DNA from: a bacterium
GTDB taxonomy: Bacteria; SZUA-182; DTGQ01
Direction: 5' to 3'
Length of the DNA: 64,000 nucleotides
Assembly (NCBI GenBank): GCA_040755755.1
Contig: JBFLZW010000069.1
Span: forward strand, 1-64,000
This document shows positions 47,807-59,566 of this stretch, in pieces. The position numbers and the translations under genes are program-made. Position 1 is the first letter of the stretch. Each line of letters begins with the position of its first letter. Below the pieces are notes generated by a model. That model had not been told where the DNA came from, searched no databases, and was given only the letters and a program-made list of their open reading frames with translations.

Positions 47807-49756
47807 ATGAAAAAGGTATTAGTCTTCAATGTGGTTTTAGGAATCGCAGGAATAATGTCCGTGGCCATTCTGGCAGTTTCCGTCCTGCAATCCGGGGCAG
47901 CCCGGCCCCCCGTCGGTGACCTGAATGGAGATGGAGTATTGACTCCGCAGGACGCACTTTTGGTCTTTAACTGCTATCTTGGAAGAGTTTCCTGTTCTGC
48001 TCAGGCGGACATAAACCAGGATGGCAGTGTCACTCCCGAAGATGCCCTGTGTTTGTTCAAGAAGTACTTAGGGCAACCATCCTGCCTGGATGGAGGAGGA
48101 ACACCAGGAGGGAACGGGAAGGCTAAAGTTGATGACTGGCAGGAAGAGTGGACATCAAACAGCTCTGGGGGGGGATACACTCCTTTCTTTCCTGCCATGT
48201 ATGGCATCGCTGCCGGTGGAGCAATGGCTTCTTCTTCCTCCATCGGCCTTTCAACGGGTGGAGCAAAGGATATCAACAACTTCCGTTCGAATATCAAAAA
48301 CGGCTATCTTCCCATTCCTAGCGATGTGACCTATGAAGGGCTGTTCTATGACTATTATTTCGACACTGGCCAGCAGGGTGAGTGCCAGAAGCTTTTTTGC
48401 CCTTCCTACAGCATGGCTGTCTCCCGGGATATCTTTTCTGAAAAGGAAGACTATTACCTGTCGGTTGGATTGAATTCGGGCATCGAGGCGGGTGATTTTC
48501 AGAGGAAGAAATTGAACCTGGTTATTGTTCTGGACATTTCAGGCTCGATGGGGTCGTCTTTTGACTCCTACTATTATGACCGGTTTGGCGTCTGGCATGA
48601 AATCAAGGAAAGTGAGAGCGTCGGGAAGAGCAAGATCCGGGTTGCTACCGAATCCATTGCTGCCCTTATTGATCATCTCAAGGATGATGACCGCTTCGGT
48701 ATGGTTTGCTTTGACGATCGGGCTTATTTGTCCAAGCCATTGAGACTGGTTGGAGAAACGGACATGCAGGCCATCAAGGATCACGTTATGGAGCTTACCA
48801 GCCGTGGGGGGACGAATATGTCTGCCGGGATGAAAAAAGGGACTGAGCTTTTTAATGAATATCTGGACATAGATCACTCCCAATATGAAAACAGGATCAT
48901 TTTTTTGACTGATGCCATGCCAAACACGGAGGACACCAGCGAAACAGGGCTCCTCGGTATGGCTAAAAAGAATGCCAATAACAAGGTATACAGCACCTTT
49001 ATCGGCATCGGAGTCGATTTTAACACCGAGCTGGTGGAATATATAACCAAGGTGCGAGGCGCCAATTACTATTCCGTTCATTCCTCGGCTCAATTCAAGG
49101 AGCAGATGGATGAGAACTTCGATTATATGGTTACACCTCTGGTCTTCAATCTGGAGCTGCGCCTTGAGGCGTCAGGCTATGAGATTGCCAAGGTGTACGG
49201 GTCTCCTGAAGCCAACGAGGCAACCGGCGAGATCATGAAAGTCAATACCCTGTTTCCATCCAGCAAAACAGAAGAAGGAACCAGGGGCGGTGTCGTCCTG
49301 CTGAAACTCAAAAAGATAGCGAACGATGCCGGGATAAAGTTGACAGTATCGTATGAGGACAGAGAAGGAAAGACTGACCGTGTGAGCGAAGAGATAGTTT
49401 TTGGCAGTCAGGAGCAGGAATTTTTTGCCAACACGGGAGTGAGAAAGGCTGTCCTGCTTTCCAGCTATGCGGATCTGCTGAAAAACTGGATTATCGATGA
49501 GCGCAAAAGCAAGGCCCGCCATGAGCCGGTTGTACCTGCGGTTACCTATGAAAAGGGCATCGTCATTCCTATCCCCTGTCCCTGTCCAACCCTGCTGGGT
49601 GAATGGGAGCGCCAGTCGGTCAATCTCACGGTTTCCAGGGAATACAAGCAATTGTTCAAGGAATTTGCCGAACACTTTAAAGATGAAATGAAGGCCATCG
49701 GTGACGAGACCTTGCAGCAGGAAGTTGATGTGCTGGAGAAATTGAGCTTGTATTAA
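47807..49756 (+). CDS. Secreted von Willebrand factor A protein with dockerin-like repeats
   Basis: 649 residues; ribosome site CAGGAGGGGG. Signal peptide at 1-32. Two calcium-loop units at about 38-90 (GDLNGDGVLTPQDALLVFN and ADINQDGSVTPEDALCLFK) form a type I dockerin-like module at the N-terminus. A Gly/Ser linker follows. The VWA domain from about 235 has the metal site DISGSMGSS and the partner Thr and Asp in SRGGTNMSAG and FLTDAMPNTED. The C-terminal 250 residues match the usual beta/helical extension of such proteins. The role is probably protein binding at the cell surface; no cellulosome genes are nearby. Confidence 0.9.
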   Translation: MKKVLVFNVVLGIAGIMSVAILAVSVLQSGAARPPVGDLNGDGVLTPQDALLVFNCYLGRVSCSAQADINQDGSVTPEDALCLFKKYLGQPSCLDGGGTPGGNGKAKVDDWQEEWTSNSSGGGYTPFFPAMYGIAAGGAMASSSSIGLSTGGAKDINNFRSNIKNGYLPIPSDVTYEGLFYDYYFDTGQQGECQKLFCPSYSMAVSRDIFSEKEDYYLSVGLNSGIEAGDFQRKKLNLVIVLDISGSMGSSFDSYYYDRFGVWHEIKESESVGKSKIRVATESIAALIDHLKDDDRFGMVCFDDRAYLSKPLRLVGETDMQAIKDHVMELTSRGGTNMSAGMKKGTELFNEYLDIDHSQYENRIIFLTDAMPNTEDTSETGLLGMAKKNANNKVYSTFIGIGVDFNTELVEYITKVRGANYYSVHSSAQFKEQMDENFDYMVTPLVFNLELRLEASGYEIAKVYGSPEANEATGEIMKVNTLFPSSKTEEGTRGGVVLLKLKKIANDAGIKLTVSYEDREGKTDRVSEEIVFGSQEQEFFANTGVRKAVLLSSYADLLKNWIIDERKSKARHEPVVPAVTYEKGIVIPIPCPCPTLLGEWERQSVNLTVSREYKQLFKEFAEHFKDEMKAIGDETLQQEVDVLEKLSLY

Positions 49757-53682: not shown

Positions 53683-54087
<405 letters not shown>

Positions 54088-54157
54088 GATAATAGTATAC
54101 CGAGTTAGTAAAGAATTAAAGAATTAAAATAGAGCTATGCACCAAGGGAGGATTATT

Positions 54158-56038
54158 ATGTCAAAGAACTATGAAAAAATATATTCACCGGAAATTAAAC
54201 CGACACTTGGGCTCCTCGGAGCCACGGTAAACGCCATGGCTTTGATTGCGCCGGGGGCATTCTTATGGATTACCTATCAGTTACAGGCTGCTGCAACAGC
54301 ACCGAATGGGGCTTCGGTCGCCTCTGATATCTGGGCAGGGATTGTTTTGGCGCTGGTTGTGGCCTTTCTCACCGCTTTGTCTTACGCCCAACTCGCCAGG
54401 TTGTATCCGGAAGCGGGTTTTGCAAGCTGCTGCTATTTTGCGGAGAAGGCCTTTATGGATCGCAATGGAAGCAAGCATTCTGCGCCGGTTTCCCTGTCCC
54501 GTGTTGCCAAGCTCCTGACAGCATGGTCAGCCCATCTTTTCTACTGGGTTTATCCGGGGGTCATGGTAGCTTTCATGGCTATTTTGATTGGTTATATCTA
54601 TACTCAGTTCACGGGTGCCACCCTGTCCATTACGGCCTTGACCGTGATAGCGACGGCATTCGCCATTGCGATCGGATATATCGGCTATCGCGGTGTTTCC
54701 GGATCGACTGCCACGGCACTCTGGATCAACATCATCCAGCTTACCGCCCTGGTCATTTTCTCCGCTCTGGCAATATATTACCGGATTACCAATCCCCAGA
54801 GCGCAACCCAGTGGGCTTTTACCGGGGCCTGGGATGTTATGCGTCCGCATTCGCTGCAAGGAGTGCTGATTCAATCCACGCTGGCAATTTTAATTCTGGT
54901 TGGATTTGAAAGCTGTACCGCCCTGGCTGCGGAAACAAAAAACCCGGAAACAAATATCCCAAAGGCTATCATACTTTCTTTGGTCATTCAGGGAATTTTC
55001 GCTTATCTTCTCCAGTACTTTGCGGCAGGCAGCATGATCAGTGAAAAACTGACCGCTGCTGTCGGAGGCACAACAGTAACCGGTATGGCTGCGGCGGCTG
55101 CGTCGAGCGCACCGATCGGCGATCTTGTTAAACTGATCGGTGATCATGTGCTTCCTGGTTTGGGGTTTGGTTTGATGATAACCATGGCCATTACCGTGGC
55201 CATCGCCATCGTCGGTACCACCTTGAGCTGCATGAATACGGCCGTGCGTGTCACCTGCGGTATGGCTGAAACCCGTGAACTGCCGGAGATGATGGGTTTC
55301 CTGCACGGCAAATTCAGCACGCCTCATGTTGCACTCTGGATACTGGTTGCAGTCTCGTCGATAATTGCGGCAATTGGAGTCAGGTCTGTGGTTGGCTTAA
55401 CGGGAATTACACTGGCTTCAAACTTCGGGACCTTCATCCTGTACGGCCTGACCTGCATCTGGACAACCGTCGCCTTTAAAAACCGCAAGGACTTCAGCTT
55501 TATCAAACATGGGATAATTCCCTTCCTCGGCCTTATTGCCAACATCGTTATGGTGGTGTCGATCCTTTACCTCTACACCATCGGAAATGCCGATGCGCAG
55601 GCCGAGGCAAAGATTTGCTTCATCATTGCAGGTGCCTGGGCTGTGGTGAGCCTCCTTTACGTTGCCCTGACCAGTGTCCAGAAATCCTATCGCGTACGGC
55701 TGGTGACCTGCCTGATCCGTCCCGAACAGCTTGGCGACGTTGTCTCGGCTTTGAGACGGGAAAATCTGGTTATGGGTATGACCGTCATAGATGTGCGCGG
55801 TTTTGGACGTCAGCGCGGTGAGAATGATGACGGTTCACCAGTGGAGGAAGAGACTATTCGTTTCCTGCCCAAATTGAAACTGGAAATCATCGTGAAAGAC
55901 TGGGATGTCGATCGGGCGATGACAGTTATCAGCGATGCAGCGCGTACCGGAAATATCGGCGATGGAAAAATAATTGTACTCGAAGCGGCATCTGCCATGC
56001 GTATCCGTACCGGAGAAAAGGGAGTTTACGCAATGTGA
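54158..56038 (+). CDS. APC-family amino-acid permease with fused C-terminal P-II domain
   Basis: 626 residues from ATG 54158 (GGGAGG upstream). Residues about 10-505 have the layout of an APC-superfamily permease: GLLGATVNAMALIAPGAFLW in the first unwound helix, ARLYPEAGFASCCYF, and ESCTALAAETKNPETNIPKA, with about 12 membrane spans. Residues about 512-626 are a complete P-II domain: LVTCLIRPEQLGDVVSAL, GFGRQRGEN (the 2-oxoglutarate-binding Gln kept), [11 protein letters not shown] and RIRTGEKG. The T-loop is shortened and reads VEEETIRF where the uridylylated Tyr should be, so it is not a target of GlnD. It probably controls the transporter directly. Confidence 0.9.
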   Translation: MSKNYEKIYSPEIKPTLGLLGATVNAMALIAPGAFLWITYQLQAAATAPNGASVASDIWAGIVLALVVAFLTALSYAQLARLYPEAGFASCCYFAEKAFMDRNGSKHSAPVSLSRVAKLLTAWSAHLFYWVYPGVMVAFMAILIGYIYTQFTGATLSITALTVIATAFAIAIGYIGYRGVSGSTATALWINIIQLTALVIFSALAIYYRITNPQSATQWAFTGAWDVMRPHSLQGVLIQSTLAILILVGFESCTALAAETKNPETNIPKAIILSLVIQGIFAYLLQYFAAGSMISEKLTAAVGGTTVTGMAAAAASSAPIGDLVKLIGDHVLPGLGFGLMITMAITVAIAIVGTTLSCMNTAVRVTCGMAETRELPEMMGFLHGKFSTPHVALWILVAVSSIIAAIGVRSVVGLTGITLASNFGTFILYGLTCIWTTVAFKNRKDFSFIKHGIIPFLGLIANIVMVVSILYLYTIGNADAQAEAKICFIIAGAWAVVSLLYVALTSVQKSYRVRLVTCLIRPEQLGDVVSALRRENLVMGMTVIDVRGFGRQRGENDDGSPVEEETIRFLPKLKLEIIVKDWDVDRAMTVISDAARTGNIGDGKIIVLEAASAMRIRTGEKGVYAM

Positions 56039-56183: not shown

Positions 56184-56522
56184 GTGAAAAAATTGGAAAT
56201 TATTATTCGCCCAGGGAAAATTGAAGCGGTACGCAAGGCGATGGAAGTGGCAGGGTGTGTCGGTGTTACCATATCGCAAGCGGAAGGTCATGGGAACCAG
56301 AAGGGTCTGACGAAGGAGAGACAGGGCAGCAGCTACCGCATGGAAATGGTTCCCAAGGTCCGCCTGGAGGCTGTTGTTCCCGACAACCGTGTCGAGCCGA
56401 TCGTCGAAGCGATTATCAGGGAAGCCAAGACAGGCCAGCCCGGTGATGGGAAAATATTTATCTTCGATGTCATGGATGTCGTCCGCATCCGCACGGGAGA
56501 AAGAGGAGAAAAGGCGATCTAG
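56184..56522 (+). CDS. Divergent P-II family protein
   Basis: 112 residues, about 40 percent like its GlnK neighbours by eye. Keeps the Gln of the T-loop base (GNQKG), a Tyr near the loop tip (GSSYRMEMVPK), GQPGDGKIFIF and RIRTGERGEKAI. Ribosome site AAGGAGG. Third P-II gene of the cluster; its partner is unknown, with the upstream permease fusion the nearest candidate. Confidence 0.92.
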   Translation: MKKLEIIIRPGKIEAVRKAMEVAGCVGVTISQAEGHGNQKGLTKERQGSSYRMEMVPKVRLEAVVPDNRVEPIVEAIIREAKTGQPGDGKIFIFDVMDVVRIRTGERGEKAI

Positions 56523-57607: not shown

Positions 57608-58003
<396 letters not shown>

Positions 58004-58024: not shown

Positions 58025-59566
58025 ATGAAAAGACAAAAACTTGGAGCTTATTTCTTTCTGGCATTCTTTTTCATATGCTTGTCCATATTCATGGCAGGGA
58101 CGGTTCTGGCCGCAAGCGATCCGGTCGGGACAGCAACGGGGACGGCGGCTGACCTTGGAGTTGATGCCGGGACCCTGACAGTAGGGAAACTGGCTGATTT
58201 TGTCGGCCATAATACGGTCTCCATCAATTTCATGTGGCTGCTGCTGACCGGCTTTTTAGTCATGTTTATGCAGGCCGGATTCGCCCTGGTAGAGACCGGC
58301 TTTTGCCGGGCCAAGAGCGCGGCTGAAACCATGATGATGAACTTTATGGTCTATGCAGTTGGTATGACCGGCTATTGGATCTGCGGCTATGCGCTGCAAA
58401 TGGGGGGTGTCGGAGGATTTGCCTCGCTGGGCGGGGGTGCTGCCCTGAGCAGGGAGATTACCATCACCCTGTTTGGAAAACCCTTTGGTCTCTTTGGCGG
58501 CACGGGCTTTTTTCTGGCCGGGGCATCCTATGATGTGGCCATCTTTGCCATGTTCCTCTTTCAGATGGTATTTATGGATACAGCCGCGACCATACCCACC
58601 GGAGCCATGGCCGAGCGATGGAAGTTCTCGAACTTTTGCATATTCGGACTGTTCATGTCCATGCTGGTCTATCCCCTTTACGGCAACTGGGTCTGGGGCG
58701 GCGGATGGCTGGCGAAACTGGGAGAAAACTTTGGCCTTGGGCATGGGATGGTAGACTTTGCCGGCTCTTCAGTGGTTCACTGCGTAGGCGGTACGGCTGC
58801 ACTTGCCGGAGCTATAGTATTAGGCCCCAGGGTTGGGAAATATAATAAAGATGGAACTCCCAATGCCATACCCGGACATGATATCCCCATGGCTATTCTG
58901 GGAACCTTCATCCTGGCCTTTGGCTGGTTCGGATTTAACCCCGGCAGCACTCTGGCTGGTGTGGACCTGCGGCTGGCGGTGGTAGCGGTCAATACCATGC
59001 TGGCTTCAGCAGCCGGAGCGCTCAGTGCCATGCTGTACATGTGGTACACCACCGGCAAGCCCGATCCCAGCATGTCCGCTAACGGCATGCTGGCCGGGCT
59101 GGTGGCTATCACCGCACCCTGTGCCTTTGTCAACAGTATCTCCGCCTTTATCATCGGTGCCATAGCCGGAGTGCTGGTAATTTTAAGCGTCTACTTCGTT
59201 GAGCGGGTCCTGAAGGTGGATGACCCGGTAGGAGCGGTTTCAGTCCACGGAGTCAATGGAATCTGGGGATGCCTGGCTTTGGGAATCTTTGCCGACGGTA
59301 GATATGGTGCTGGCTGGAACGGCGTGGAAGGGACCGTACGGGGTCTTCTCTATGGCGATGCCTCACAGTTCATGGCCCAGTTGATTGGCTGCCTGGTCTG
59401 CTTTGCCTTCGTCTTTGTCAGCTTCTATGCATTCTTCAAGGTCAGCGACCTTCTGGTCGGAATCAGGGTAAGCAAAGAGGCGGAAATCGAAGGTCTGGAC
59501 ATTCCTGAAGTCGGCATCCTTGCATATCCGGATTTTCATACAGTAGAGTTATCTCCAGAAGCATAA
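58025..59566 (+). CDS. amt: Ammonium transporter
   Basis: 513 residues. A cleavable-type N-terminal hydrophobic segment (to about residue 28) is followed by 11 membrane spans. Marks: the signature DFAGSSVVHCVGGTAALAGA with the first pore His, FNPGST, and VSVHGVNGIWGCLALG with the second. The C-terminal cytoplasmic tail (SKEAEIEGLDIPEVG) is the GlnK-docking type. Driven by the upstream sigma-54 promoter under nitrogen limitation. Confidence 0.97.
   Translation: MKRQKLGAYFFLAFFFICLSIFMAGTVLAASDPVGTATGTAADLGVDAGTLTVGKLADFVGHNTVSINFMWLLLTGFLVMFMQAGFALVETGFCRAKSAAETMMMNFMVYAVGMTGYWICGYALQMGGVGGFASLGGGAALSREITITLFGKPFGLFGGTGFFLAGASYDVAIFAMFLFQMVFMDTAATIPTGAMAERWKFSNFCIFGLFMSMLVYPLYGNWVWGGGWLAKLGENFGLGHGMVDFAGSSVVHCVGGTAALAGAIVLGPRVGKYNKDGTPNAIPGHDIPMAILGTFILAFGWFGFNPGSTLAGVDLRLAVVAVNTMLASAAGALSAMLYMWYTTGKPDPSMSANGMLAGLVAITAPCAFVNSISAFIIGAIAGVLVILSVYFVERVLKVDDPVGAVSVHGVNGIWGCLALGIFADGRYGAGWNGVEGTVRGLLYGDASQFMAQLIGCLVCFAFVFVSFYAFFKVSDLLVGIRVSKEAEIEGLDIPEVGILAYPDFHTVELSPEA

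What the first reader, a model, noticed from the sequence alone, without database searches (positions are those of the whole stretch)
54158..56038. Amino-acid permease with its own P-II sensor domain
The sequence shows a complete P-II fold joined to the C-terminus of an APC permease, with ATP-loop, C-loop and 2-oxoglutarate Gln kept but the T-loop shortened and its Tyr lost. Known P-II proteins act as separate trimers that plug AmtB. A fused copy suggests an oligomeric transporter with built-in energy/nitrogen control that GlnD cannot modify. It lies between a GlnK gene and a third, divergent P-II.
Basis: partly seen in the sequence, partly recalled or inferred. Interest (0 to 1): 0.85.

Follow-up and report, generated by a model that had tools for sequence, protein, structure and literature searches.

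The report
Amino-acid permease with tethered P-II sensor
A bacterial amino-acid-type transporter carries a nitrogen and energy sensor (P-II) welded to its tail and sits beside a matching free P-II; the pair recurs in at least nine named phyla where its sister transporters carry a kinase/phosphatase pair instead, which suggests uptake directly gated by nitrogen and energy status.

Summary
The fusion is real. ORF 54158-56038 (626 aa) is one open frame: a 12-helix APC permease followed, after about two residues, by a complete P-II domain. It is no assembly error: 33 loci (34 proteins, at least nine named phyla) carry the same architecture as one clade (support 100/100), its P-II domain under purifying selection (dN/dS 0.04-0.08). 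Residues for ATP/2-oxoglutarate binding are kept. In 28 of 33 loci a distinct free P-II ('partner', window 56184-56522) adjoins the fusion, with fixed-length T-loop and usually Arg47/Tyr51. The unfused sister permeases (70% identical and below) lack P-II and instead have a PP2C phosphatase directly downstream (41/43) and a Ser/Thr kinase within 5 kb (39/40); fused loci have neither (0/27). Best explanation: P-II replaced a phospho-switch as on-board controller of a nitrogen-solute permease, probably as a mixed trimer with the partner; the mixed trimer is inference. I found no description in the literature held. Substrate and direction of control are unknown.

The parts
54158..56038 (+). APC permease - P-II fusion gene (626 aa; start ATG 54158 behind ribosome site 54144-54151)
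   Evidence: same architecture in 33 other proteins
54158..55687 (+). permease domain, 12 predicted TM helices with broken TM1 and TM6 (LeuT/APC fold)
   Evidence: AA_permease_2 hit; AF2 model; best Foldseek match GkApcT 6f34/5oqt
55589..55687 (+). TM12 plus helical stalk (model residues 478-510), about two residues before P-II strand beta1
   Evidence: AF2 model of the window protein and a second, largely overlapping model of L054
55697..56017 (+). fused P-II domain (Pfam-matched part)
   Evidence: PF00543, 67-71 bits; ligand residues kept
55820..55870 (+). degenerate T-loop of the fused domain (17 residues, no Arg47 or Tyr51)
   Evidence: Alignment with E. coli GlnB/GlnK
56184..56522 (+). 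partner P-II gene (EGHGNQKG in place of KGFGRQKG; T-loop of normal length; Tyr51 kept, Arg47 replaced by Gln in the window copy)
   Evidence: adjoining partner-type P-II in 28 of 33 fused loci
53749..54087 (+). GlnK-type P-II gene just upstream of the fusion
   Evidence: PF00543, 114.8 bits
57653..58003 (+). second GlnK-type P-II gene, 92% identical to the one at 53749
58025..59566 (+). ammonium transporter amt
   Evidence: PF00909, 385.5 bits
57542..57557 (+). sigma-54 type promoter TGGCACACCCCTTGCA upstream of glnK-amt
   Evidence: Pattern scan; rpoN present in the genome

Best explanation
A secondary transporter of the APC superfamily, most likely for an amino acid or other nitrogenous solute, carries a canonical nucleotide/2-oxoglutarate P-II module as a rigid cytoplasmic cap. 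Shown: the single frame, the fold families, the kept ligand residues, the degenerate T-loop, the single origin of the fusion, the adjoining partner P-II in most loci, and its exchange with a PP2C phosphatase/Ser-Thr kinase module in the sister clade. Inferred: the fused domain binds ATP, ADP and 2-oxoglutarate at subunit interfaces of a P-II trimer; that trimer is made of one tethered domain and two copies (or two and one) of the partner, so that a permease of the usual APC stoichiometry can use an obligate trimer; ligand-driven changes are passed through the TM12 stalk to the gate, while the partner's T-loops point to the cytosol for other targets. The unit does the job of the kinase/phosphatase pair of the relatives: switching uptake to nitrogen and energy status. 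Low 2-oxoglutarate (nitrogen excess) would be expected to close the permease, by analogy with GlnK-AmtB; the sign is not shown.
For: Same architecture in 34 proteins, one clade 100/100 in the permease tree (the one unfused row in it, L066, stops at its contig end), labels of at least nine phyla. Fused domains are also one clade 100/100 in the P-II tree, separate from the partner class. Kept in the fused domain: Lys58, Lys90, Arg101 and Gly84/87/89 34/34, Arg103 32/34, Gln39 29/34; T-loop 11-24 residues, Arg47 and Tyr51 0/34. Partner set (29 free P-II): T-loop of fixed length but for one, Tyr51 26/29, Arg47 22/29, Gln39 28/29, Lys58 29/29. Partner-type gene within 200 nt downstream in 24 of 33 loci, 842-1431 nt in three more, just upstream in L068. 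PP2C downstream of the permease 41/43 unfused vs 0/27 fused; kinase 39/40 vs 0/27; even a remote relative (G233) has both. Nitrogen setting: glnA downstream 34/40 unfused and 7/27 fused, amt downstream 11/27 fused; sigma-54 sites upstream of 6-7 of 33 fused genes vs 0 of 42 unfused, background 0.018 per kb. Distance correlation fused domain-partner r 0.76 (n 26), fused domain-Amt-linked P-II r -0.16 (n 13). Precedents for mixed P-II trimers: GlnB/GlnK heterotrimers (cited in PMC5448240); PDB 9p1x holds two P-II chains at 12:6, the 12-chain one closest to this genome's NifI1.
Against: No binding, transport or oligomer data. The coevolution signal rests largely on the window's own subclade: without it the partial correlation given the permease is 0.30 (p 0.007), and 0.19 (p 0.07) for adjoining pairs only. 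Five fused loci, all labelled FCPU426, lack an adjoining partner (one is cut off 61 nt after the fusion), and five domains have Thr for Gln39, so a partner or 2-oxoglutarate is not always needed. The exchange with PP2C/kinase is one evolutionary event on each side of one branch, not many independent ones. The substrate is not known; Kdp-type sensor kinases and K+ transporters near some copies leave a potassium link open.
Confidence: 0.47

Rival explanations
1. The fusion forms its own homotrimer: three permeases joined by a trimer of fused P-II domains that senses ligands; the partner P-II is a separate regulator of other targets that merely travels in the same operon.
For: P-II proteins are trimers; a 2023 review notes that known P-II-controlled transporters are trimeric (PMC10710835). 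FCPU426 members have no adjoining partner. Without the window clade, coevolution of the two P-II beyond that of the permease is weak.
Against: APC transporters are usually monomers or dimers (own knowledge). A separate, T-loop-bearing P-II class adjoins 28 of 33 fusions.
Confidence: 0.22
2. The fused domain is a membrane anchor or transceptor: it recruits partner or GlnK subunits to the membrane and reports solute flux or holds P-II back from targets, rather than gating the permease.
For: GlnK is sequestered at the membrane by AmtB (literature cited in PMC10710835). The T-loop face of the tethered domain should point to the cytosol, since residue 9, at the far end of strand beta1 from the tether, lies on the T-loop face (PMC6603209), and TM12 runs into beta1 with 1-2 residues between.
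Against: The same permeases elsewhere have a kinase/phosphatase pair at the same place, which suggests control of the permease itself.
Confidence: 0.2
3. The fused domain has become a structural cap that stabilises the permease and no longer senses ligands.
For: T-loop lost in all 34; Gln39 lost in five. A PII-like cytoplasmic cap in the unrelated exporter AexB helps transport by an unknown mechanism (PMC13170310).
Against: Lys58, Lys90, Arg101 and the B-loop glycines are invariant and Arg103 nearly so; dN/dS 0.04-0.08.
Confidence: 0.09
4. Assembly error or chance read-through joins two separate genes.
For: All copies are from genome assemblies, nearly all metagenome-derived.
Against: The same joint in 34 proteins of one clade from separate assemblies.
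Confidence: 0.01

Closest known systems
GlnK-AmtB (and cyanobacterial PII-Amt1)
   Same: P-II protein of the PF00543 family controlling a membrane transporter of nitrogen; found beside amt and glnA
   Different: GlnK is a separate trimer that plugs a trimeric channel with its T-loop; here the P-II is covalently attached by its N-terminal end, lacks the plug residues, and sits on an APC transporter
SbtA-SbtB
   Same: P-II superfamily protein controlling a secondary transporter (review PMC10710835)
   Different: separate proteins, bicarbonate transporter, AMP-dependent; no fusion
PII-UrtE in Synechocystis
   Same: P-II acting on a nitrogen transporter without need of the T-loop (PMC6603209)
   Different: ABC transporter; separate protein
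AexB (YvjA) of Bacillus subtilis
   Same: amino-acid transporter with a PII-like cytoplasmic cap on the same chain (PMC13170310)
   Different: exporter of another family; the cap is PII-like, its ligand unknown; here a canonical P-II domain with its ligand residues on an APC permease, with a partner P-II
KimA (APC potassium importer) with c-di-AMP
   Same: APC-fold transporter with nucleotide-bound cytoplasmic control; appears in the fold search
   Different: other ligand and other regulatory domain; no sequence match in the profile search of solved structures
NifI1/NifI2
   Same: two different P-II paralogues encoded side by side; the closest solved relative of NifI1 (9p1x) holds two P-II chains at 12:6
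   Different: control of nitrogenase, no membrane tether

Membership tests
P-II (Pfam PF00543) | match over the curated score | tested here: met
   67 bits vs 25
P-II (Pfam PF00543) | ATP and 2-oxoglutarate residues (Gln39, Lys58, Gly87, Lys90, Arg101, Arg103) | tested here: met
   all present in the window protein; family counts 29-34 of 34
GlnB/GlnK equivalogs (NCBIfam NF008111, NF007946) | match over the curated score | tested here: not met
   81.5 vs 202 and 85.1 vs 181 bits; but the free GlnK genes here also fall short (about 147-152)
GlnB/GlnK | T-loop with Tyr51 (uridylylation) and Arg47 (AmtB plug) | tested here: not met
   0 of 34 fused domains have either
GlnB/GlnK | free-standing homotrimer | not testable with these tools
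   covalently fused; oligomeric state unknown
APC superfamily, AA_permease_2 (PF13520) | match over the curated score | tested here: met
   61.4 bits vs 27
APC superfamily | 12 TM helices with broken TM1 and TM6 | tested here: met
   AF2 model, pLDDT 81.9; best structural match GkApcT, TM-score 0.80 by target length
CAT-type amino acid transporter (TIGR00909) | match over the subfamily cut-off | tested here: not met
   65.9 bits vs 556.8
Amino-acid permease | transport of an amino acid | not testable with these tools
   no substrate data; nitrogen neighbours only

The most novel reading that the evidence does not exclude
A tethered P-II system in which a non-trimeric transporter is controlled by a mixed P-II trimer (one fused domain with intact ligand site but no working T-loop, plus free partner subunits with working T-loops), having replaced a Ser/Thr kinase-phosphatase switch on the same permease and spread between phyla as a cassette.
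Probability: 0.35. Interest if true: 0.82.

Novelty: new variant of a known kind. Interest (0 to 1): 0.67.

Why it matters
P-II is among the most widespread signalling proteins, and its known transporter targets are controlled by separate P-II trimers; a 2023 review of transporter control lists no P-II fusion and notes that P-II use appears restricted to transporters that work as trimers (PMC10710835). A covalent P-II on an APC permease breaks that pattern, gives a one-chain object for asking how P-II ligands move a transporter gate, and the paired sister clade with PP2C/kinase offers a natural swap experiment: same permease, two regulatory logics. It also matters for annotation of Omnitrophota and other uncultured peat, fen and groundwater bacteria, where it recurs.

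Tried and rejected
Assembly error (rejected). T-loop plug of its own permease (unlikely: no plug residues, tether at the opposite face). GlnD control (no GlnD recognised). Plasmid hits of the fusion were free P-II or APC matches only; the Paracoccus hits that seemed to reach into TM12 are a free glnB before glnA. Other P-II fusions: in a 193-genome survey long open frames with P-II in G184, G037 and G069 looked like spurious upstream extensions in GC-rich DNA, not fusions; that survey's list was cut off at E about 5e-24, so weaker fused domains would not show. Fold-based substrate guess: the APC fold matches amino-acid transporters best but KimA too, so no substrate is claimed. Literature searches for a P-II-APC fusion found none, in an open-access library only.

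Full report
WHAT IS THERE. The frame 54137-56038 is open without a break; the likely start is ATG 54158, six bases behind AAGGGAGG. The 626-residue product matches Pfam AA_permease_2 and P-II, both well above their cut-offs. Around it lie glnK (53749), a divergent free P-II (56184), a second glnK (57653, 92% identical to the first) and amt (58025). The genome (5.26 Mb, 88 contigs, 97.6% complete) holds eight P-II matches in all, two of them nifI1 and nifI2 inside a nif cluster. The closest sequenced cousin of the same genus (G001) showed no fused permease, so the unit is patchy within the group.

CORRECTION OF THE OBSERVATION. The T-loop of the fused domain is 17 residues between the equivalents of Gly41 and Lys58; E. 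coli GlnB has 16. It is not shortened. It is degenerate: across 34 fused domains its length runs from 11 to 24 and neither Arg47 nor Tyr51 occurs once. Outside the T-loop the site is intact: Gly27, Thr29, Gly35, Gly37, Lys58, Gly84, Gly87, Asp88, Gly89, Lys90 and Arg101 in all 34, Arg103 in 32, Gln39 in 29. Purifying selection on the fused domain is as strong as on the permease (dN/dS 0.04-0.08 in six informative pairs; dS is near or above 1 in several, so these are rough).

A WIDESPREAD SINGLE-ORIGIN FUSION. With the window, 33 loci hold 34 fusion proteins. In the permease tree they form one clade with full support; the single row in it without P-II, L066, is cut by its contig end. Record labels: Omnitrophota 9, FCPU426 7, Planctomycetota 4, Nitrospirota 3, Thermodesulfobacteriota 2, Elusimicrobiota 2, one each of Myxococcota, Fibrobacterota and Spirochaetota, and unnamed bacteria. 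The labels are the depositors' and nearly all records are metagenome bins. They interleave in the tree, which points to transfer between phyla. The fused domains are also one clade in the P-II tree.

A DEDICATED PARTNER. In 24 of the 33 loci a free P-II of a distinct class begins within 200 nt of the fusion's stop (overlapping by four bases in L065), in three more within 1.5 kb, and in L068 it lies just upstream. Its signature is EGHGxQKG in place of KGFGRQKG (His for Phe36 in 28 of 29); its T-loop has GlnB's length in all but one, with Tyr51 in 26 and Arg47 in 22 of 29, and the ligand residues are kept. The window's copy has Gln at position 47. In the sampled loci the class was seen only with the fusion clade, apart from long-branched NifI genes that group uncertainly with it. 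The five loci without an adjoining partner are all labelled FCPU426, one of them cut 61 nt after the fusion. So the two P-II units are complementary: one has the ligand site and the membrane tether but no working T-loop, the other has both ligand site and T-loop but no tether. Distances in the two P-II units correlate (r 0.76, n 26, Mantel p 2e-4), while Amt-linked P-II from the same loci do not follow the fused domain (r -0.16, n 13). A caution: most of this comes from the window's own five-member clade; without it the partial correlation given the permease is 0.30 (p 0.007), and 0.19 (p 0.07) for adjoining pairs only.

AN EXCHANGED REGULATORY MODULE. The sister permeases (about 52-70% identical to the window's) have no P-II domain. 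In 41 of 43 with enough sequence, a PP2C phosphatase gene follows directly (gap at most 172 nt), and in 39 of 40 a Ser/Thr kinase gene lies within 5 kb; in fused loci 0 of 27 have either. A remote relative in G233 has both as well, so the phospho-switch is probably the older arrangement. glnA lies downstream in 34 of 40 unfused and 7 of 27 fused loci, amt downstream in 11 of 27 fused and none of 40 unfused. This is one branch of one tree, so it is one event seen many times, but the pattern is what replacement of one control device by another would leave. Sigma-54 promoters lie upstream of six or seven of 33 fused genes and none of 42 unfused ones against a background of 0.018 per kb; the window has a perfect one before glnK-amt (57542), and the genome has rpoN.

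GEOMETRY. In an AlphaFold2 model (mean pLDDT 81.9; about 67-78 at the joint) TM12 continues as one helix to residue 510 and strand beta1 of P-II begins at 513; a second model for L054 gives 507 and 509 (the two alignments share most rows, so this is a consistency check, not independent proof). In P-II, residue 9 at the end of beta1 lies on the T-loop face (PMC6603209), so the N-terminus lies at the other end. Hung by its N-terminus from a short stalk, the domain should turn its T-loop face to the cytosol, the reverse of GlnK on AmtB.

MECHANISM. Best supported: ligand-dependent control of the permease by the P-II cap, with the partner completing the trimer. P-II paralogues can form mixed trimers (GlnB/GlnK, cited in PMC5448240), and PDB entry 9p1x, whose 12-chain P-II is the closest solved relative of this genome's NifI1, holds its two P-II chains at 12:6 (trimer make-up there is my inference from the chain counts). 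Mixed trimers would solve the mismatch between an obligate trimer and an APC transporter. Direct gating of the permease by some P-II arrangement I put at about 0.7, the mixed-trimer form at about 0.47. Substrate is open: the fold is closest to the amino-acid transporter GkApcT and the neighbours are nitrogen genes, but Kdp-type sensor kinases and K+ transporters also occur nearby in several loci.

NOVELTY. Searches of the held open-access literature returned no P-II fused to an APC permease; the nearest are the PII-like cap of AexB and the separate P-II regulators listed in a 2023 review. The architecture may well be visible in domain databases; that could not be checked here. I rate it a new variant of a known kind: P-II control of transporters and fused regulatory domains are both known, their union with a paired partner and a swapped kinase/phosphatase module is not, as far as I could find.

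Noticed in passing
L039:8612-12158; L132:4427-8378; 41 of 43 unfused loci: The unfused sister permease sits in a conserved operon permease-PP2C-Ser/Thr kinase-glnA, itself apparently an undescribed phospho-regulated nitrogen permease unit.
   Followed up: partly
window 53749-54087 and 57653-58003: Two GlnK genes 92% identical to each other flank the fusion unit; only the second adjoins amt.
   Followed up: partly
L041:2605-10754 (genome contig C55): nif cluster with a nifA-like regulator, nifH, nifI1, nifI2, nifD, nifK, nifE: the organism is a likely diazotroph.
   Followed up: partly
L042:5126-5467 (genome contig C78): A weak P-II match (35 bits) whose gene overlaps the start of an HD-domain-like phosphohydrolase gene; weak P-II matches also occur in two other genomes (G094, G235), context there not checked.
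   Followed up: no
L046, L050, L059, L084, L089, L091, L132: A KdpD-like sensor kinase (DUF4118), often with a response regulator, is divergently encoded next to the permease in several loci, fused and unfused; K+ transporter genes are near some copies.
   Followed up: no
L045:2478-4196 and similar in L084, L089: A 573-residue protein with a C-terminal universal-stress domain, no other Pfam or NCBIfam match, recurs near the permease and Kdp-type genes.
   Followed up: no
L058:7944-8909, L065:6038-6812: Some fused loci carry two partner-like free P-II genes in tandem after the fusion.
   Followed up: no
window 47807-49756: Secreted-looking protein with a dockerin type I and a von Willebrand A domain.
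   Followed up: no
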